DNA of 21,695 nt from a virus, in the IMG/VR virus record IMGVR_UViG_3300047325_000096, positions 1 to 21,695 of that record. One strand, 5' to 3'. Within the stretch, counting starts at the first letter, position 1; each line of letters begins with the position of its first letter. Shown piece after piece: positions 3,268 through 17,593 of this stretch. The translations under genes and the position numbers were made by a program. The notes beneath the pieces were generated by a model. That model worked only from the letters and a program-made list of their open reading frames with translations, made no database searches and had not been told where the DNA came from.

Positions 3268-3522
3268 ATGAACAGCAAGCACCATAAGACGCTCGACGCG
3301 ATCTTCAGCCGGCCGACCCGGGCCGATATCCGTTGGTCGGATATCGAGGCCTTGGTGATCGGCTGCGGCGGCTACGTCCAGGAAAGGGCTGGAAGTCGGG
3401 TCGCCATGACGTTGAATGGTGTGCGCGCCAGCTTTCACCGACCGCATCCGAAGCCGACCACCAAGAAAGGCGCCGTGGATGCGGTCCGACTGTTCCTCAC
3501 TAACGCGGGAGTGAAGCCATGA
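3268..3522 (+). CDS. hicA: HicA family toxin (mRNA interferase)
   Basis: An 84-residue protein starting MNSKHHKTLDAIFSRP and closely fitting the short HicA toxins of the type II HicAB systems. HicA has a double-stranded-RNA-binding-like fold and cleaves mRNA until HicB neutralises it. The middle holds GSRVAMTLNGVRASFHRPHP. Many HicA proteins have a catalytic His in a GSH motif; here that position is R, as in the subfamily that ends in FHRPHP, and the His residues of that motif are the likely active ones. It is transcribed opposite to the surrounding tail operon, so it looks like an inserted cargo gene. No Shine-Dalgarno sequence precedes the ATG. The stop overlaps the hicB start by ATGA. Confidence 0.9.
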   Translation: MNSKHHKTLDAIFSRPTRADIRWSDIEALVIGCGGYVQERAGSRVAMTLNGVRASFHRPHPKPTTKKGAVDAVRLFLTNAGVKP

Positions 3523-3842
3523 CCATGGAATACAAGGGCTACACGGCCGGCCCAATCGATTTCGACCCCGAGGACGAGACGTTCTCCGGCGTCGTTCTCG
3601 GCCTCAAGGATGTCATCCACTTCGAAGGATCGAATGCGGCGGATCTGCGCGCCTCTTTCCAGGGTGGTATCGACGATTATCTGGCGCAGTGCGCCGAGCG
3701 TGGCGAGGAGCCGGATCGGCCGTTCAACGGCAAGATCCTGGTCCGCACCGCGCCGGAATTGCATCGGAAGGCGGCGACCCGCGCGGCAGCGGAGGGATCA
3801 AGCCTCAGCCAGTGGATCGCCCACCTCATCGAGGCCGCTTAG
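3519..3842 (+). CDS. hicB: HicB family antitoxin
   Basis: A 107-residue protein with the usual HicB layout. The N-terminal part (about 1-60) is the degraded RNase H-like HicB domain, with YKGYTAGPIDFDPEDETFSG and the DVIHFEG stretch. The C-terminal part (about 68-107), KILVRTAPELHRKAATRAA and SLSQWIAHLI, is a ribbon-helix-helix DNA-binding domain of the Arc/MetJ type. It should bind HicA and repress the operon. A clear ribosome binding site, GGGAG at 3,507-3,511, lies 7 bases before the ATG, while hicA has none, which would favour antitoxin production. Its stop lies 2 bases from the convergent stop of the tape measure gene. Confidence 0.92.
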   Translation: MTMEYKGYTAGPIDFDPEDETFSGVVLGLKDVIHFEGSNAADLRASFQGGIDDYLAQCAERGEEPDRPFNGKILVRTAPELHRKAATRAAAEGSSLSQWIAHLIEAA

Positions 3843-3844
3843 GG

Positions 3845-6502
3845 TCAGCGGACCGGGCTGTAGCTCAAGGTGCTGTCGAACCCGGCCATGCCGGTACGCG
3901 GGCCGTTCAGCGTGCGTGCGGCGTTGTCGAGGATCAATTGCCCTGCCGTGCGCCCGTCGAGTTGGACGGTAGCGCCATTGAGCTGGTCGCCGAGCGTCCT
4001 GACCGCTCCGATGAGCTCATCCATCTTCCCGTCGGAGCTCGATCCAGGATCGCTGCTCGATCCGCTGGTCGCCGAACTGTCATCGCCGCTCGCGTCGAAG
4101 CGCGAGCCGCGCGCCATGCGTGCGCCGGCCATTGGCGACGTGTTGCTGGTCGCTCCGTTGCGATCGATCGGCGCCAGGCCAAACCAGCCCCGGATGTCGT
4201 TCTTCACTGGATCGAGCAAGCCATTGATGAACGAATCGCCGGCGCCGTCCTTGCGGTATTTCGGGCTCACGAAGTCGTCGACCCCGGCCGTGGTGCCTTT
4301 GGCTTGTGCGCCCAACGCAAGTAGCCCAGCGATCGTACTGATTGCCGTGACCACGGCTCCAAGCCCGGCAGCCGCAGCAGCACCGCCAGCAAATGGTGCC
4401 GCCGAGCTTGCCAGGGTTGAGATCCCCGCGGCCAAGAGCGGCAAACCGGCCTTCAGTACCATGAACGAGCCGACCGCGGTCGCGAGCGAGCCGATACCAA
4501 CGGCCATGACCCCAAGACCTGCGCCGATCGCAACGACGGTCGTTGCCATGGTCGGGTTGTCCTTGACCACTTCGGTTACCGACCGGATTGCCTCGGCGAG
4601 GCCCTTCAGCGCGGGGATCACGATCGGGATGATGTCGATGCCGAGCTCGGTGTAGAGGTCCTTCCATGCGGCCTTGGCAGCTTCCTCGGCGCCCTGCGGC
4701 GTGCCGAGGGCGGTCTTGTGGAGATCGTCGAGGCCCATGGCGCCCTCGTTGATCCCCATGTTCTTCCTGACCTTGTCTATCTGCTGGAACAAAAGGCTGT
4801 ACATTGCGGCAGCCGTGCGGTTCGTGAAGAGCGTCCCGAGCTCGTTCACGATCGCCTTGTCATCGGTGATGCCGTGCGCCTTGAAGGCGGGCAGCAGGAT
4901 GTTCTGCAGGAATTTCAGCGGATCGGAGCCGACCAGGTCGCCGCCCGCCACCGCACCGGGATGGATTGCCAGCAGCTTGCCGGTCGAGCTGAACTCGACG
5001 TTCTTCTCGTTGAACGGGTTCTTCCCGAACAGAGCCTCATTCTGCTCCGCCGTGTTGCCGCCAAAATCGGCTGTGCCGCCGGAGAGCAGCCCGAGCCGCT
5101 TCAGTTCGTTCATCGTGCGTTGGGTGGTGCGGCCCTGCCCGAGGTTCTGGTAGGCACTCATCAGGCCGGTGCCGGCGCGCTGGCCGCCCATTTCCTGGAT
5201 CAGCGGCTCCATCTGGTAATAGAAGGTCTTGTCGTCCTGCAGACGGCCGGCGACGCCCGCCGTCTTGAGGAATGCCAAATAGTCGGACGGCAGCACATTG
5301 CCGCTCGTGCCCGAGATGACGTGCTGCGCCAGGTCGGCCTGGGTGCGCATCTCCTCCGCAGACCGGAAGCCGCCGCGCATTTCGATGACCTTGCCCAAGG
5401 CTGCGGCCTGAGCCGGATCGAACTTGTTTCGGCCGGTGAACACGGCCGCGTTTGCGAATTCCATATCGGCGATCAGCGGCGCGATAGCCTTCGCCTCGTC
5501 ATAGTTGCCCATGGCGGTATGGAGCGCGGCGAGCGTCCGCATCATATCGGTCGAGGATACCCCGATTCCGTGCACGCCGCGGGCAAACTTGTCCGCATCG
5601 GCGTTGACGACGTCGCCGAGGTTCAGCGCCTTGAAGGTGGCGAACGTCTGCTCGTATTCCTTGCCAGCTTCGTAAAAGTCGTGGATGGCGCCGAGTGTCT
5701 CCTTGCCGGCATGCTCGATGCCATAGCCGGCGTCGGACAGCGCAAAGCCGCCGAACATGCCGCCGTACCCGCCGCCGCCGAAACCGCCCCCACCAGCACC
5801 GCCGCCGGCTGCCGCCGCTCCAGATCGCGACGCGTTGAGGCTCGGACCGATCCCGCGGCCACCGCCGGCACCCGCCAGCGCAACACTGCCGCCGCCCCCG
5901 CCTCCCGGCGGGATAATGCCAGCGGCCGCCCGAGCGGCGAGCGCGCCTGGCGTGGCGCTGCCACCGATGGTGACCATCTCGCGCGGCCCGATCGAAGCGA
6001 GCGATCTGGTGGCCGGAAGCGGTGCGATAATCGGTGGCTGCGGGGGCAGCACCTGCGGCAACGGCATGATCTTCGGCCCGGCCGCCGCCTTCCCGCCGTC
6101 AATGACGGTGAACTGGGGGCGATTGACATTCGCCGCCTGATCGAACTGCTTTGCGAATGCGTCGGCCGCGGCCCGGCCGGTCGCGTTGCCCCAGGCGCGC
6201 GCAGCGCGCTCCGATGCGCTCTGGCTCCGGCTGAAGGCTTCCGACCAGCCGTTCGCAGCGCCGCCCTGAGCCTGCTTCATGGCGCGCGTGACGCGGCCAA
6301 TGTTGCGCTCGATGTCCTGCGCGAAGGTCTTCGACATCGATTCGGCTGCATTCGCCTGCGACTTACCCAAGCCACCCAGCGCCTGTTCGGCTGCCTTGGC
6401 GAGCTTGTTGATCTTCATCAGATCGCGTGCCATCGCCGCGAATTCCGCTGCGCCCTGGTACTTGTAGGCGATCGAGATGCCGATTTTGTACGCTTCGACC
6501 AT
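3845..6502 (-). CDS. Tail tape measure protein
   Basis: An 885-residue protein, the longest in the tail operon, at the expected place after the assembly chaperones. It sets tail length and is later ejected with the DNA. The N-terminal 120 residues are helical with many A, K, E and Q (coiled-coil-like). Residues 195-255 are an extreme glycine-rich linker. About 290-640 is a helical region of the kind seen in Mu-like phage tape measures. About 648-735 is a strongly hydrophobic A/G/V/L stretch that could span a membrane in two or three passes, as in tape measures that form a channel. The C-terminal 100 residues are polar. The start ATG (6,500-6,502) has an AAGGAGG ribosome binding site 5 bases upstream. 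By the usual rule of about 0.15 nm per residue the tail would be near 130 nm. Confidence 0.9.
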   Translation of the reverse strand: MVEAYKIGISIAYKYQGAAEFAAMARDLMKINKLAKAAEQALGGLGKSQANAAESMSKTFAQDIERNIGRVTRAMKQAQGGAANGWSEAFSRSQSASERAARAWGNATGRAAADAFAKQFDQAANVNRPQFTVIDGGKAAAGPKIMPLPQVLPPQPPIIAPLPATRSLASIGPREMVTIGGSATPGALAARAAAGIIPPGGGGGGSVALAGAGGGRGIGPSLNASRSGAAAAGGGAGGGGFGGGGYGGMFGGFALSDAGYGIEHAGKETLGAIHDFYEAGKEYEQTFATFKALNLGDVVNADADKFARGVHGIGVSSTDMMRTLAALHTAMGNYDEAKAIAPLIADMEFANAAVFTGRNKFDPAQAAALGKVIEMRGGFRSAEEMRTQADLAQHVISGTSGNVLPSDYLAFLKTAGVAGRLQDDKTFYYQMEPLIQEMGGQRAGTGLMSAYQNLGQGRTTQRTMNELKRLGLLSGGTADFGGNTAEQNEALFGKNPFNEKNVEFSSTGKLLAIHPGAVAGGDLVGSDPLKFLQNILLPAFKAHGITDDKAIVNELGTLFTNRTAAAMYSLLFQQIDKVRKNMGINEGAMGLDDLHKTALGTPQGAEEAAKAAWKDLYTELGIDIIPIVIPALKGLAEAIRSVTEVVKDNPTMATTVVAIGAGLGVMAVGIGSLATAVGSFMVLKAGLPLLAAGISTLASSAAPFAGGAAAAAGLGAVVTAISTIAGLLALGAQAKGTTAGVDDFVSPKYRKDGAGDSFINGLLDPVKNDIRGWFGLAPIDRNGATSNTSPMAGARMARGSRFDASGDDSSATSGSSSDPGSSSDGKMDELIGAVRTLGDQLNGATVQLDGRTAGQLILDNAARTLNGPRTGMAGFDSTLSYSPVR

Positions 6503-6569
6503 CTCGCCTCCTTCTTGGCGCCCTCTATGGCGTGGATTAGTGTCAGACCGTTTTCATCTGGAGGTCGAA

Positions 6570-7028
6570 ATGCGTTTAGCACTTTCCATTATAGTAGCGA
6601 CCACCACGTTCGCGTGCCTTTCAGCGTCCGCTGCCGATCACGAAGCGGATGCTGAAGCCATCGCGGCCGTCATGCAGAAGGAAATCGCCCGCGTTCAAGC
6701 AATTCAGCCCTCGCGCCTCGCGATCCATGCGCCTGCAGAAATCTGCGAATCAGAAGATGGTCTGCACGAGGCCATGGTCGCCACGCTCCAGAGGGACGCC
6801 GCGCATCTGATGGCTATCCCCGGATGCTACAGCCTCGGCAAAGGCACGAGGGTCGCAGTCCTTGACTTCCCGAACCCGCTGACAGCCCACATCAGAATGA
6901 TCTTGCCGCCAGGCTCCCAGTCACCCTTGCAGGGCAGCGAATACTACATGCTGCCGGCGAGCATCGATGATATCGGCAACATTCCACCGTCTCTTCTGAT
7001 TGGTGGCGGGGCGAAGGCGAAGAAGTAG
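6570..7028 (+). CDS. Secreted protein of unknown function (phage cargo gene)
   Basis: A 152-residue protein on the strand opposite to the tail operon. The start chosen is the ATG at 6,570, because GGAGG (6,560-6,564) lies 5 bases before it and a good signal peptide follows: MRLALSIIVATTTFACLSAS, with a signal peptidase I site expected after residue 21 (ASA). The longer frame starting at 6,477 lacks this and would overlap the tape measure. There is no convincing lipobox. The mature part holds two cysteines (C59 and C86) that could form a disulfide, and a GCYSLGKGTRVAVLDF motif. It ends KAKK. I recognise no family. Placement and export suggest a lysogenic conversion or superinfection exclusion protein; that is inference. 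It resembles the C-terminal part of the protein at 21,163-21,600 in layout. Confidence 0.72.
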   Translation: MRLALSIIVATTTFACLSASAADHEADAEAIAAVMQKEIARVQAIQPSRLAIHAPAEICESEDGLHEAMVATLQRDAAHLMAIPGCYSLGKGTRVAVLDFPNPLTAHIRMILPPGSQSPLQGSEYYMLPASIDDIGNIPPSLLIGGGAKAKK

Positions 7029-7041
7029 AGCTTGCGCTCTA
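7026..7041. other. Small hairpin at a convergent gene end
   Basis: TAGAGC-TTGC-GCTCTA is a perfect inverted repeat with 6-base arms and a 4-base loop. The stop codon of the secreted-protein gene (TAG, 7,026-7,028) forms one arm and the stop codon of the convergent gp10-like gene (7,039-7,041) forms the other. It could pause RNA polymerase in both directions, but there is no U tract and the stem is short, so terminator activity is doubtful. Confidence 0.35.
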
Positions 7042-7488
7042 TTCGATGATCCCCTTAACGACCGCCTGCCCCAGCATCCTCGTGACGCGATCGCCCTCCT
7101 CGACGGCCGCGGCGCCGAGGACTGACCTGGGCGGTATGCTTCGGGTTCCAAGCTCCTGCCAGAGCAGGATGTCCGAATTGGAGCCGACGACCGCCTGACT
7201 GCCTTCGCTGTTCCGCTCGATGCTGTCGCGCGTCTCGCCGCTGCGCAGCAACGCGTCGGCCGGCGGGTAGCCGAGCCGGGCGCGCTCCTCTTGGGTGCTG
7301 TCGGCCAAAGGCGCCCACGCGACGAATGGGCCGGCCGCCGGCTGCTCCGGCACGCCGATTCGATCTTTTGCCGCCTGCTGGACGACCGCAGCAGCCTTGT
7401 CGAGTGTCTTCTGTGCGTGCGCCGCGCCGCGCCCATGCATGCGCGCAAGGTGCGGTAGGAAGGCGTCAATGCTGTTGAACGATCGCAT
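7039..7488 (-). CDS. HK97 gp10-like tail/virion morphogenesis protein
   Basis: A 149-residue protein resembling the HK97 gp10 / phage virion morphogenesis group, which act at the head-proximal end of the tail or in tail completion. Family-like features are a helical N-terminus with AAAVVQQAAKDRIGV, the central WAPLADSTQEERARLG, LLRSGETRDSIE, and the ending WQELGTRSIPPRSVLGAA. The start chosen is the ATG at 7,486-7,488: it lies 5 bases after GGAGG, and it overlaps the stop of the frameshift product by TGATG. An adjacent ATG at 7,491 is too close to that ribosome binding site. An upstream GTG at 7,530 lies inside the frameshift extension. Its place between chaperones and tape measure is unusual for this family. 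Confidence 0.68.
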   Translation of the reverse strand: MRSFNSIDAFLPHLARMHGRGAAHAQKTLDKAAAVVQQAAKDRIGVPEQPAAGPFVAWAPLADSTQEERARLGYPPADALLRSGETRDSIERNSEGSQAVVGSNSDILLWQELGTRSIPPRSVLGAAAVEEGDRVTRMLGQAVVKGIIE

Positions 7489-8119
7489 CATCGCCTCCGT
7501 TTCGGCGGATCGGGCTTTCGCTCGCGCCACGCCATCTTCTTCCAGTCGAACTTACCGCCTTCGAATTGACCTAAGATCACGCCCCAGGCGAGACGCTGGG
7601 CTTCGTCCAAGCTAAAGGCGACGTCGAAGGGAACCCCGTTCTTTACCAGCCACAGGCACTCAATGAGCGCGGGGTCGGCGGCTAGTTTTTTGCGGTGCCG
7701 GCGACCTCATCCTCGTCGACCACGCCGAAGTAGCTTTTGACCGCCGCGCCGACGGCATTCAGCCCCTCATCGCCCAAGCGCGAAACCATTGCCTCGAGTT
7801 GGCGCTCGGTGATGGGGGGCGCAACCGGCTCGCCATCGATCTCCGTGACCGATGCAGCCAGAGCTGCATAGCCCATGTAGACCTCGTTGGCCGACAACTG
7901 GCCGCCGAGCGCCTTGAACAGGCGCATGCGATCGAGCGGCGAGAGCTTCTTGACGCCGATCGACCGGCCGCGCTCATCCTTGGTGCGCACGATGCCATTG
8001 GCGTCGGCAACGAACTGCTGGGTCGGCGTCGTGGAGGCGGCCGCCGCTGCAGGAGCGCCAGGGCCCTCGTCTGCTTCTGCCGTGATACCGGTCGCGCCGA
8101 CCAATTCCATCTCCGTCAT
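7488..8119 (-). CDS. Tail assembly chaperone, long form made by -1 frameshift (GT/E' type)
   Basis: A predicted 210-residue fusion made when ribosomes shift back one base at 7,685-7,691, before the TAG stop of the short form. The first 145 residues are shared; the 65 added residues begin LAADPALIECLWLVKNG and contain FSLDEAQRLAWG and FDWKKMAWRER, the pattern seen in the second part of phage tail assembly chaperones. The extension has no start codon or ribosome binding site of its own near its beginning, and without frameshifting 7,489-7,681 would be a gene-free gap in an otherwise packed operon. The product should bind the tape measure protein and recruit tube subunits. The stop TGA (7,488-7,490) overlaps the start of the next gene. 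Confidence 0.82.
7682..8119 (-). CDS. Tail assembly chaperone, short form (G/E type)
   Basis: A 145-residue protein between tube and tape measure genes, the classical place of the tail assembly chaperone. An A/P/T-rich N-terminal segment (about 12-35) precedes a compact helical domain with KKLSPLDRMRLFKALGGQL, a tract shared by chaperones in many contractile phages. The start chosen is the ATG at 8,117-8,119, which overlaps the tube stop by TGATG and has GAAGGTGG upstream; an in-frame start at 8,152 lies within the tube gene. The gene ends with GCA AAA AAC TAG, so that the last codons form a slippery site. Most ribosomes should stop here and some make the longer form. Confidence 0.85.
   Translation of the reverse strand: MTEMELVGATGITAEADEGPGAPAAAAASTTPTQQFVADANGIVRTKDERGRSIGVKKLSPLDRMRLFKALGGQLSANEVYMGYAALAASVTEIDGEPVAPPITERQLEAMVSRLGDEGLNAVGAAVKSYFGVVDEDEVAGTAKN
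7685..7691 (-). promoter_or_regulatory. Slippery heptamer A_AAA_AAC for programmed -1 frameshift
   Basis: On the minus strand the codons GCA AAA AAC TAG give a perfect X_XXY_YYZ heptamer with the stop directly after it. A shift by one base makes ribosomes read CTA GCC GCC GAC and continue for 65 codons. The location, at the 3' end of the first chaperone frame, is the one where tail-chaperone frameshifts are known in many phages. A downstream stimulatory structure was not established by eye. Confidence 0.85.
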
Positions 8120-8562
8120 CACGCCACCTTCTTTCGGAAGCTCGCCCGCCACGAGACCGTCTGGGTGAGAATGTCGTCACCCTTGGCATCGCCTGCGTTT
8201 TCGAACCTCATGGCCACGCCCTCGAAGCGGTACTGCGAGAGGATGCCGTTGACCTCGGTGATGGTCTCCGAGATGGTAAAGGACCACAGCGAATTGCCGT
8301 TGAAGAAGTCGAGTTCCATCTCGGCGAACAGGTCGTCGAGCACGGAATTGCCTCGATCGATCTCAAACGTTCCTTCCCAGCCGGCGGGCTGGCTGCCGAA
8401 GCGAGGGACGCCGTCGAGCGCCGTCGAGGTGTGCTCCTTGGTGAGCTGGGACTTCTTGAACTCGGTCACGATCTGCGGGTCGACCAGGCCGTTCGGCCCG
8501 TTGATCACGAGCGTGACGTCGGCGCCGACGTTGTAGCCGCCCTGGCCAGTGTTCACGGGCAT
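8119..8562 (-). CDS. Tail tube protein
   Basis: A 147-residue protein directly after the sheath gene, where the tube gene belongs in contractile phages. It is beta-rich, starts MPVNTGQGGYNVGADVTLVI, and contains KKSQLTKEHTSTALDG and the typical late segment LSQYRFEGVAMRFEN, followed by TVSWRASFRKKVA. Many tube proteins of the XkdM/Mu gpM type have about 120-150 residues and show this order of strands. It stacks as hexameric rings around the tape measure and forms the inner channel. The start ATG (8,560-8,562) has a TGGAG ribosome binding site 4 bases before it. Its stop overlaps the chaperone start by TGATG. Confidence 0.83.
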   Translation of the reverse strand: MPVNTGQGGYNVGADVTLVINGPNGLVDPQIVTEFKKSQLTKEHTSTALDGVPRFGSQPAGWEGTFEIDRGNSVLDDLFAEMELDFFNGNSLWSFTISETITEVNGILSQYRFEGVAMRFENAGDAKGDDILTQTVSWRASFRKKVA

Positions 8563-8609: not shown

Positions 8610-10493
8610 TTACGACTGCTGGCCGACCCGCGTCACGGTGACGGATTGGCCGCCCTCGAGGTTGACGATGAAGAACTCGACGACCGACAGATACGTGACG
8701 CGCACGTCCGCCTGCATGTAGCCGAGGGCCACGCGCGGCTGCGGATTGTTGCTATCGTCGAGCGTGACCTGGAAGGCCGGCGAGCCGTCCGCCGTGCCGA
8801 TCTGCCCTTGAGCTTGCATGGCGGCGAGGAAGGATTCGATCGAACCCTTCGCCTGAAGGCGCAGGCTCTGCGTTTGCAGCTTGCCGACGAACTGGCCCAT
8901 CGCCGAATTGAGCGTGGTGGCCAGATAGTTGGTCAGGCGGGTGTAATTGTCGCCATGGACCAGCGCATTCGAGGACGAGTTCCGGCCGAACCGGACGCCA
9001 AACTGCGCGCCGGCCGGGATGGGGTTGGTGATGACGTCGAGACCACCCTGCCCGATCACCTGGAGCTCGGCGTCGCTATAGGGCGCGCCGGTCTGGCTGC
9101 GCTGGGTCCCCACCACGCCGAAGACCTGCTTATTGAGCGCCGAGTTCTGCGGGGCGAGGTTCGCGAGCAGACCGGCGACGAAGGCCTGCGGCGAGACGAG
9201 CCGGATCACGCCGTTTACGGCATCGGACCAATAGACCCAGTCGCCCAGCATCAGCTTGAACCAGGCGCTGTCGATGCCTGCCGCCTGTTTGTTCGCGACG
9301 GCCGTCGAGGGCGTGTCCGAGAAGGGGCCCGTGCCGACGACGTAGGTCTCTTCCTGCTGGGCGAAGGCGACCTGGGAAGTCCACTGGGTGCTGTCGTCGG
9401 CGTCCGCGAGCATGACGACACCCGTACCGGCGTTCCGCAGGGCATACATGCCCTTGCGCGGCGTGGTGTCGACGCCGACCAGTGTGGCGGCCGTAATGGT
9501 CGTGACACCGTCGGTGCCCCCGGAGAGCGTGGAACTCCCGAGCGTCGGGACGCTCACGGACGTGCCGGCCGTGGCCCTCACCAACTGGGACGGACCGCGC
9601 TGGGCGGTCTGGCCGAAGTTGATGGCGTTCGCCATGTTGACCCACAGCTGCGCGCCGGCGCCCCCGATGTTATCGAAGGTCTCCGGCTGCAGGCCGGGCA
9701 TGCTGACGACCGCCTTATAGGTCGGGGTGGATGGCGTGCTGCTGCTGCCGGCTGAGAGCGTGAACTGCGCGGCGTTGCCCAGGGAGCCGGTGTATTTCGA
9801 GGCGATCGTGATCTGGGCGGTGGCTGCGGCGCCTCCGGCCAGCGTCGCGCCCGAGGCGGTGGCGCCGGTGACGTTGGTCGCGAGCGTGAAGCTGTTGCCC
9901 GCAATGCCGACCTGTCCGTAGGTGACGGTCAGCACGGTCGCGTTCGCCGCGTAGGTGCACTTGGACAGGTTGGCGTCGGCCGAGCCGGCCAAGAAGCCTT
10001 GCAGGGCCGTGAGGGTCGCGGAGAGGCTACCACCGATGTTCACCTGGTTGCCGCTCGCGCCAGAGGCGACGAAGGTGACTACCGTGCCGCCGATCGTGAT
10101 CGTCGAGGCGGCCACCGGGTTGGCGGTGAAGGTGACGGTGCCCGATGCCTGCGACCCGCTGACGCCGCCGATCGCGACCTGTGCGGCTGTGTCGGTCCCG
10201 TCCGTGACGCGAACGCCCAGCATGTTGTTCGCGCCCTGCTGCGTCGCGATCGCGGCGGCAGTGCCCATATCGTACTTGCGGTTCTGGACGGGTCCGAACA
10301 GCTGCGCGTACTGGGACATGCTCCCGAACACGGTGGGAATGCCGACCGGCCCCCACGGGGCGGTGCCGACGATGCCAAGCACGTTGGTCGGCACACCGTT
10401 GAGCGTCGAGATGTCCGGCGACAGGATCTGGATGTAGGCGTCCGGCACGACGAGCGCGGTCGTGTTCAGCTGGCCGGCGAGGCTGATGGGCAT
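8610..10493 (-). CDS. Tail sheath protein with an inserted beta domain
   Basis: A 627-residue contractile sheath protein. The N-terminal part has VPDAYIQILSP and NVLGIVGTAPWGP, both typical of sheath subunits; the C-terminal part has SALNKQVFGVVGTQRS, FGVRFGRNSSSNALVHGDN, the helix TRLTNYLATTLNSAMGQFVG, and an end domain with VTYLSVVEFFIVNLEGGQ, which carries the donor strands that lock neighbouring subunits. Residues about 112-222 do not belong to the sheath core: they form a T/G/V/A-rich beta domain set between VTDGTDTAAQVAI and TAQITIASKYTGSLGN, which are contiguous in ordinary sheaths. The family's usual length is about 390-520 residues, and the insert explains the excess. The start ATG at 10,491-10,493 has GGGAG 9 bases upstream. 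Confidence 0.93.
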   Translation of the reverse strand: MPISLAGQLNTTALVVPDAYIQILSPDISTLNGVPTNVLGIVGTAPWGPVGIPTVFGSMSQYAQLFGPVQNRKYDMGTAAAIATQQGANNMLGVRVTDGTDTAAQVAIGGVSGSQASGTVTFTANPVAASTITIGGTVVTFVASGASGNQVNIGGSLSATLTALQGFLAGSADANLSKCTYAANATVLTVTYGQVGIAGNSFTLATNVTGATASGATLAGGAAATAQITIASKYTGSLGNAAQFTLSAGSSSTPSTPTYKAVVSMPGLQPETFDNIGGAGAQLWVNMANAINFGQTAQRGPSQLVRATAGTSVSVPTLGSSTLSGGTDGVTTITAATLVGVDTTPRKGMYALRNAGTGVVMLADADDSTQWTSQVAFAQQEETYVVGTGPFSDTPSTAVANKQAAGIDSAWFKLMLGDWVYWSDAVNGVIRLVSPQAFVAGLLANLAPQNSALNKQVFGVVGTQRSQTGAPYSDAELQVIGQGGLDVITNPIPAGAQFGVRFGRNSSSNALVHGDNYTRLTNYLATTLNSAMGQFVGKLQTQSLRLQAKGSIESFLAAMQAQGQIGTADGSPAFQVTLDDSNNPQPRVALGYMQADVRVTYLSVVEFFIVNLEGGQSVTVTRVGQQS

Positions 10494-16868: not shown

Positions 16869-17252
16869 ATGCCGGCGCCCCGCATCGAACGGCCGTCGCT
16901 GGCGTGGAACCGCCGAAAGCGGCCGGACATGTCGCCCGCGCACAAGGCGCTGGTGAAGCAGTTGCCGTGCCTGGTCTGCGGCCGGTCCTCCGATGACCCG
17001 CATCATCTGATGCGGACCGGCGAAGTCGTGAACGGCAAGGCGATGTCTCGCACCAGCGCCGACAAGTGGGCGCTCCCTGTGTGCCGGGACCATCATGACC
17101 AAGCCCACGACGCCGGCGACGACGAGGCTTGGTTCGCGGCTCAGGGCATCGATGCGCGGGCCGTGGCGCGCTCCCTGTGGTCCGTCACTGGCGACCTCGA
17201 GGACATGCAGAGGGTCATCTTCCGAGCTTCCCAGTTGCGGAGGGCCGAATGA
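16869..17252 (+). CDS. HNH nuclease-like protein, DUF968/Ref-like
   Basis: A 127-residue protein with zinc-binding C34-LV-C37, the pair H45-H46 after SSDDP, and then C72-RDH-H76-DQAH80. This arrangement, with a PCLVCG start and a late CxxHHDxxH, is the one in phage DUF968/recombination nucleases of the Ref type. It may cut DNA during recombination or packaging. The C-terminal part is helical (WFAAQGIDARAVARSLW), as is common in DUF968. The ATG at 16,869 is 2 bases after the ATPase stop; the open frame upstream is a shadow of the ATPase gene. Its stop overlaps the next start by ATGA. Confidence 0.8.
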   Translation: MPAPRIERPSLAWNRRKRPDMSPAHKALVKQLPCLVCGRSSDDPHHLMRTGEVVNGKAMSRTSADKWALPVCRDHHDQAHDAGDDEAWFAAQGIDARAVARSLWSVTGDLEDMQRVIFRASQLRRAE

Positions 17253-17593
17253 CGCCGGTCCAGCGCGACACCCTGCAGGTGATCAGCACCTACATCGCCG
17301 AGCACGGCTGCTCGCCCAGCTACGAGGACATCCGGATCGGGCTCGGCATCAAGTCCAAGGGGCGCGTCCATGCCATCGCCGCCGAGATGAAGCGCCGCGG
17401 ACTGATCGATTTCGATCATGGTCACTCACGGAGCATCCGGATCCTGGACCCGAACGACACACCCGATCTGGTCGCGGTGAGGCTCCGGGCTCTCCATGAG
17501 GCTGCCGACATCGCCGTCCGCTTCGGCATCGATGGCGCGCGCGCCGCGGTCGCCATCCGCAAGCACGCCGACGCGCTGGGATCAGCGCCATGA
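17249..17593 (+). CDS. LexA-type winged helix DNA-binding protein without protease domain
   Basis: A 114-residue protein. Residues 1-65 match the DNA-binding domain of LexA: MTPVQRDTLQVISTYIAEHG, SPSYEDIRIGLGIKSKGRVH, and MKRRGLIDFDHGHSRSIRIL. The Ser/Lys peptidase half of LexA is missing, so it cannot cleave itself. The last 45 residues are a short A/R-rich helical part. A role as a repressor of part of this operon or as a competitor for LexA sites is possible. It lies inside the operon, not next to a promoter. No LexA-type box was recognised by eye. Confidence 0.82.
   Translation: MTPVQRDTLQVISTYIAEHGCSPSYEDIRIGLGIKSKGRVHAIAAEMKRRGLIDFDHGHSRSIRILDPNDTPDLVAVRLRALHEAADIAVRFGIDGARAAVAIRKHADALGSAP

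What the first reader, a model, noticed from the sequence alone, without database searches (positions are those of the whole stretch)
7488..8119. Programmed -1 frameshift on A_AAA_AAC makes a two-part tail chaperone
The short chaperone ends in GCA AAA AAC TAG, an ideal -1 slippery heptamer with the stop directly behind it. The -1 frame then stays open for exactly 65 codons, reads like the second half of tail assembly chaperones (FDWKKMAWRER), and ends in a TGATG overlap with the next gene. Without it, 7,489-7,681 would be an unexplained gap. An ordinary gene caller would miss the extension. Frameshifting in this position is known from lambda, P2 and others; this particular site was read from the sequence.
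Basis: partly seen in the sequence, partly recalled or inferred. Interest (0 to 1): 0.72.

Follow-up and report, generated by a model that had tools for sequence, protein, structure and literature searches.

The report
Frameshifted phage tail assembly chaperone
This phage gene ends in a built-in ribosomal slip site that should make a share of the protein 65 residues longer; it is a sound and widely conserved example of a well-known trick for building phage tails, in a protein family that databases have not yet labelled.

Summary
Confirmed. On the minus strand, ORF 8119-7682 ends GCA-AAA-AAC-TAG. The -1 frame then runs 65 codons to TGA 7490-7488, overlapping the next gene's ATG.

Comparison supports a real programmed -1 frameshift. 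In all 65 distinct viral loci examined (window included) and ten intact prophage loci, the extension lies in the -1 frame of the same upstream gene. 63 of 65 carry an in-register X_XXY_YYZ heptamer (12% expected by codon shuffling). Heptamer-to-motif spacing is 14 codons in 63 of 65, while the zero-frame stop wanders. The extension is under purifying selection only in the -1 frame, and most loci offer no start codon for separate translation. Many relatives keep a covarying hairpin 6 nt after the heptamer; the window's is weaker.

The first half folds like the HK97 tail assembly chaperone and lies between tube and neck/tape-measure genes, so a lambda G/GT-type chaperone is very likely. Slippage and chaperone function were not measured.

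New in detail: PHROG 20383 ("unknown function") is this chaperone's first half; the second half has no family in Pfam, PHROGs or NCBIfam and is mis-split in phage phiKX1. One correction: A_AAA_AAC is not the ideal bacterial heptamer; in E. coli A_AAA_AAG is much stronger.

The parts
7682..8119 (-). Short (G-like) tail assembly chaperone, 145 aa, zero frame, ATG 8119 to TAG 7684-7682
   Evidence: PHROG 20383 E 1.7e-22; AlphaFold2 pLDDT 84.7; fold match to HK97 chaperone 2OB9 Z 5.4
7685..7691 (-). Slippery heptamer A_AAA_AAC, stop TAG directly behind it
   Evidence: Sequence; in-register heptamer in 63 of 65 loci
7488..7685 (-). -1 frame extension (T-like), 65 codons plus TGA
   Evidence: conserved in viral and prophage loci; dN/dS 0.158 in this frame; AlphaFold2 pLDDT 93
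7670..7678 (-). 5' arm of the putative stimulatory hairpin, 6 nt after the heptamer (7 of 9 pairs form in the window, one of them G-U)
   Evidence: Columns 14-22 of A3
7630..7638 (-). 3' arm of the putative hairpin, in the NGVP codons
   Evidence: Columns 54-62 of A3
7039..7488 (-). Next gene, neck/tail completion protein; its ATG overlaps the extension's TGA
   Evidence: PHROG 26 E 9.7e-12; Phage_tail_S E 7e-5
8119..8562 (-). Tail tube candidate, directly upstream
   Evidence: PHROG 12993 (unknown function) E 1.7e-38; position after the sheath gene; same order in relatives
8610..10493 (-). Tail sheath
   Evidence: PHROG 23 E 6.5e-43
3845..6502 (-). Tape measure protein
   Evidence: PHROG 28 E 1.8e-11

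Best explanation
The stretch 8119-7488 encodes a two-product tail assembly chaperone of a contractile-tailed phage. Most ribosomes read the zero frame and stop at TAG 7684-7682, giving a 145-aa G-like protein. A minority slip back one base on A_AAA_AAC and read 65 more codons, giving a 210-aa GT-like fusion. By analogy with lambda, the G part binds the tape measure protein and the few T-bearing copies recruit tail tube subunits. Shown here by comparison: conserved slip site, conserved -1 frame, protein-level selection on the extension, chaperone-like predicted fold of the first half, and gene position. Inferred: that slipping occurs and at what rate, the role of the hairpin in the window, and the binding partners.
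For: Sequence exact. The extension is in the -1 frame of the same upstream family in 65 of 65 distinct viral loci, none in +1, none fused in frame, and in 10 of 10 intact prophage loci (Acidocella, Paraburkholderia, Pseudogulbenkiania, Aquabacterium, Zavarzinella, Ralstonia, two Acetobacter, two Asaia). In-register heptamer in 63 of 65 against 12% by codon shuffling. Heptamer-to-NGVP spacing 14 codons in 63 of 65 although the stop lies 0, 3, 18 or 39 nt downstream. dN/dS 0.158 in the -1 frame versus 1.76 and 1.68 in the others. 51 of 60 scored loci have no start codon in the extension frame before the conserved motif, and none has a Shine-Dalgarno-like site there. Covarying hairpin 6 nt downstream in many relatives. 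First half: HK97 chaperone 2OB9 Z 5.4 over 99 residues and YqbN 3KLU Z 5.3, next unrelated row 2.6; several BFVD matches named tail assembly chaperone. Order sheath, tube, chaperone/extension, neck, tape measure conserved.
Against: No experiment. The fold match is moderate (Z about 5; Foldseek E 0.22 for 2OB9). No sequence-profile link to a named chaperone family except one weak hit (PHROG 344, one member of 47, E 0.003). A neck gene, and in the window an extra plus-strand gene, lie between chaperone and tape measure, unlike lambda. The hairpin is weak in the window. A_AAA_AAC is a poor slip site in E. coli (PMC5009743).
Confidence: 0.93

Rival explanations
1. The extension is a separate small gene translated from its own start by coupling to the upstream stop.
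For: phiKX1 is annotated this way, from an internal ATG. Coupled starts are common in phage operons (general knowledge).
Against: 51 of 60 loci, the window among them, have no ATG/GTG/TTG in the extension frame before the conserved motif, and none has a Shine-Dalgarno-like site there. The phiKX1 ATG would cut off the conserved start of the domain. Coupling does not explain the heptamer or its fixed spacing.
Confidence: 0.03
2. RNA polymerase slips on the A run, and the fusion comes from edited mRNA rather than from ribosomal slipping.
For: 58 of 65 loci have a run of at least six A.
Against: Six A is short for transcriptional slippage (general knowledge), and relatives use G_GGA_AAC, C_CCA_AAG and A_AAT_TTG, which suit tandem tRNA slipping but not homopolymer slipping.
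Confidence: 0.03
3. A chance open frame, a sequencing error or a decayed gene.
For: A 65-codon open frame has about 10% chance at this composition.
Against: Same frame relation in 65 independent contigs and 10 prophages; protein-level selection in the -1 frame only.
Confidence: 0.01

Closest known systems
Lambda gpG/gpGT
   Same: Short chaperone plus a -1 frameshifted longer form, encoded between tail tube and tape measure genes (PMC5009743).
   Different: No sequence match by the profiles used; lambda slips on G_GGA_AAG (general knowledge), here mostly A_AAA_AAC; the zero-frame stop usually abuts the heptamer; a neck gene separates it from the tape measure gene.
HK97 tail assembly chaperone (2OB9) and YqbN (3KLU)
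   Same: Predicted fold of the first half (Z 5.4 and 5.3). An HK97-like chaperone cluster showed 6-7% frameshifting in experiments (PMC3711429).
   Different: 4-6% sequence identity over the structural alignment; contractile rather than flexible tail.
Mu-like and P2-like myovirus chaperones
   Same: Contractile-tailed phages with a frameshift before the tape measure gene (PMC2628397 citing Xu et al. 2004).
   Different: Mu was described as -2; no Pfam chaperone family matches here.
Komagataeibacter phages phiKX1 and phiKX2
   Same: phiKX1 read in full: same halves, same GCA-AAA-AAC-stop junction and gene order. phiKX2 matches both halves by tblastn.
   Different: About 35% identity; extension annotated as a separate hypothetical protein.

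Membership tests
Frameshifted tail assembly chaperone (lambda G/GT kind) | Gene lies between the major tail (tube) gene and the tape measure gene | tested here: met
   Sheath, tube, chaperone, neck, tape measure in window and relatives; tube assigned by position
[quoted passage not shown]
Frameshifted tail assembly chaperone (lambda G/GT kind) | Both halves conserved as protein | tested here: met
   Alignments A1 and A2; dN/dS in the -1 frame
Frameshifted tail assembly chaperone (lambda G/GT kind) | Short half shares a fold with solved tail assembly chaperones | tested here: met
   2OB9 Z 5.4, 3KLU Z 5.3, 5IR0 4.7, next row 2.6; moderate only, Foldseek E 0.22 for 2OB9
Frameshifted tail assembly chaperone (lambda G/GT kind) | A curated sequence family for tail assembly chaperones matches | tested here: inconclusive
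   No relevant Pfam or NCBIfam match; one of 47 members hits PHROG 344 at E 0.003
Frameshifted tail assembly chaperone (lambda G/GT kind) | Low-level -1 product measured; products bind tape measure and tube and are absent from the virion | not testable with these tools
   Needs mass spectrometry, reporters and binding assays
PHROG 20383 (unknown function) | Profile match of the short half | tested here: met
   47 of 47 first halves, best E 7e-56; window E 1.7e-22

The most novel reading that the evidence does not exclude
An unlabelled chaperone family of contractile-tailed phages in which the zero-frame stop usually abuts an A_AAA_AAC heptamer and takes part in the signal (slow termination holding the ribosome on the site), together with a hairpin 6 nt downstream, so that a heptamer weak in E. 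coli slips usefully in these hosts.
Probability: 0.2. Interest if true: 0.45.

Novelty: new member of a known kind. Interest (0 to 1): 0.3.

Why it matters
It assigns a function to PHROG 20383 (unknown function) and exposes a conserved 55-65 residue domain that Pfam, PHROGs and NCBIfam lack, probably because annotation drops or mis-splits it. The family is widespread in metagenomic and prophage myoviruses, so joining the two halves would correct many annotations. It also gives a large natural set of A_AAA_AAC sites in bacteria, mostly with the stop directly behind, useful for asking how a heptamer that is weak in E. coli works elsewhere. It does not change the understanding of tail assembly.

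Tried and rejected
In-frame fusion in some relatives: L008, L071 and L080 first looked open for 158-201 codons upstream, but a corrected partner search showed the usual -1 arrangement. An off-by-one in my window coordinate gave a false heptamer for the window; corrected. Separate start for the extension: rejected. Transcriptional slippage: judged unlikely from non-A heptamers in relatives. RNAalifold on the whole family found no consensus structure, because the hairpin belongs to a subset (columns 16-18 reading CAC, GAC and the like); in the other 20 sequences folding is unremarkable (median z -0.5). A pseudoknot in the window was drawn from the minimum-energy fold plus ACCCC/GGGGU, but it was not tested for conservation and is not claimed. 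Sequence search of the first half against the PDB gave only chance matches. VIA-align gave no match for the extension model (one search is unrelated), and BFVD gave only a weak one (A0A6J5SEC2, E 0.18). The first genome-contig scan with the first half found nothing; the extension alignment did. A tblastn of the window's own extension against isolated phage records found nothing.

Full report
What is there. The feature lies on the minus strand. ORF 8119-7682 encodes 145 residues and ends GCA AAA AAC TAG. The heptamer A_AAA_AAC occupies 7691-7685. The -1 frame is open from 7706 to the TGA at 7490-7488 and adds exactly 65 residues, LAADPALIECLWLVKNGVPFDVAFSLDEAQRLAWGVILGQFEGGKFDWKKMAWRERKPDPPKRRR. 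The TGA overlaps the ATG of the next gene. A slippery heptamer directly followed by a stop occurs once in the whole window on either strand, namely here; a 65-codon open frame alone would arise by chance about one time in ten at this composition. The slip has to happen in the 21 nt between 7706 and 7685, because upstream of 7706 the -1 frame is closed.

Surroundings. The tail genes run on the minus strand: sheath 10493-8610 (PHROG 23), tube candidate 8562-8119 (PHROG 12993, unnamed, assigned by position), this gene, a neck protein 7488-7039 (PHROG 26), and the tape measure protein 6502-3845 (PHROG 28). Relatives keep the same order, with the next gene overlapping or adjoining the end of the extension.

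Conservation of the frameshift. The extension found 165 relatives among viral contigs, of which 80 loci were fetched; the short half found 6. After removal of duplicates 65 loci remain, the window included. In all 65 the extension is in the -1 frame of an upstream ORF of the same family; none is in +1 and none is fused in frame. A canonical X_XXY_YYZ heptamer stands in register in 63 of 65: A_AAA_AAC 41 (window corrected), A_AAA_AAG 13, A_AAA_AAA 4, G_GGA_AAC 3, C_CCA_AAG 1, A_AAT_TTG 1; codon shuffling gives 12%. The two exceptions are L008 (GGGGGAATAG) and L021 (CGA AAA TAG). The distance from heptamer to the conserved NGVP motif is 14 codons in 63 of 65, while the zero-frame stop lies 0, 3, 18 or 39 nt after the A-type heptamers. 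So the heptamer, not the stop, is locked to the extension. Ten intact prophage loci from Acidocella, Paraburkholderia, Pseudogulbenkiania, Aquabacterium, Zavarzinella, Ralstonia, Acetobacter and Asaia show the same; two further loci are truncated or decayed.

Selection and alternatives. Among 54-57 pairs of extension sequences, median dN/dS is 0.158 in the -1 frame and 1.76 and 1.68 in the other two; the pairs are not independent. Of 60 loci scored, 51 have no ATG, GTG or TTG in the extension frame in the stretch before the conserved motif, and no candidate start has a Shine-Dalgarno-like site. This speaks against separate translation. Heptamers that are not A runs speak against polymerase slipping.

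Stimulators. In 32 relatives with a His/Asp/Asn codon at the first hairpin column, a 9-pair stem begins 6 nt after the heptamer. 84.7% of cells pair, against 33-50% in slid versions; the covariation score is 0.247 against 0.129 in shuffles and at most 0.123 slid. The clearest case joins an amino-acid difference to a synonymous one: C at the first position of the His codon always goes with the Val codon GTG (17 of 17), while G there goes mostly with GTC or GTT (18 of 25). That test ignores phylogeny. With the protein sequence kept and codons resampled, this subset folds with median z -2.6, against -0.1 in the middle of the first half over all sequences. The subset was chosen by its own column, so the size of the effect is somewhat favoured. 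In the window 7 of 9 pairs form, but folding is not unusual (z -0.7 and -0.25), so the hairpin is not established for the window itself. A purine-rich SD-like stretch upstream of the heptamer is commoner than in control stretches, 52% against 21%.

Function. All 47 aligned first halves match PHROG 20383, unknown function. The AlphaFold2 model (pLDDT 84.7) has HK97 tail assembly chaperone 2OB9 (Z 5.4, 99 residues, 4.3 A), YqbN 3KLU (Z 5.3) and a PICI protein 5IR0 (Z 4.7) as its only matches above Z 3, and several phage proteins named tail assembly chaperone among its best BFVD matches. Scores are moderate, but the independent agreement of fold, gene position and frameshift is hard to explain otherwise. 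The extension is predicted with high confidence (pLDDT 93) as a small helical domain without a solved counterpart found.

Against the known. Lambda G/GT frameshifting, its role and its broad conservation are established (PMC5009743; Xu et al. 2004 as cited there). For an HK97-like chaperone cluster 6-7% slipping was measured (PMC3711429). This case works like those and meets the sequence-testable defining features; the biochemical ones are untested. What differs is detail: an unlabelled family, mostly A_AAA_AAC rather than the E. coli-preferred A_AAA_AAG, a stop usually abutting the heptamer, and a neck gene before the tape measure gene. In phiKX1 the same junction (GCA AAA AAC TGA) is present and the extension is annotated as its own hypothetical protein; the paper describing that phage does not mention a frameshift in its main text.

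Verdict. The finding is right in observation and interpretation, with 'ideal' overstated. It is a new member of a known kind.

Noticed in passing
3268-3842, + strand: HicA toxin (PF07927, E 4.8e-8) and HicB antitoxin (PF05534, E 5e-17) pair inserted against the direction of the tail operon, between the tape measure gene and the next tail gene.
   Followed up: partly
6567-7028, + strand: Small protein with a signal-peptide-like start, opposite to the tail operon, between the neck and tape measure genes; no Pfam family.
   Followed up: partly
8119-8562, - strand: PHROG 12993 (unknown function) occupies the tail tube position here and in L037 and L044, so it is probably a tail tube family.
   Followed up: partly
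L088 (phiKX1) 3965-4506: Two adjacent hypothetical proteins in GenBank are the two halves of one frameshifted chaperone.
   Followed up: yes
L008 and L021: The only two loci without a canonical heptamer; L021 has A_AAA before TAG, L008 has a G run. They may slip differently or be poor sites.
   Followed up: no
17129-17593, + strand: Protein with only a LexA-type DNA-binding domain match (PF01726, E 8.7e-9), a repressor candidate.
   Followed up: no
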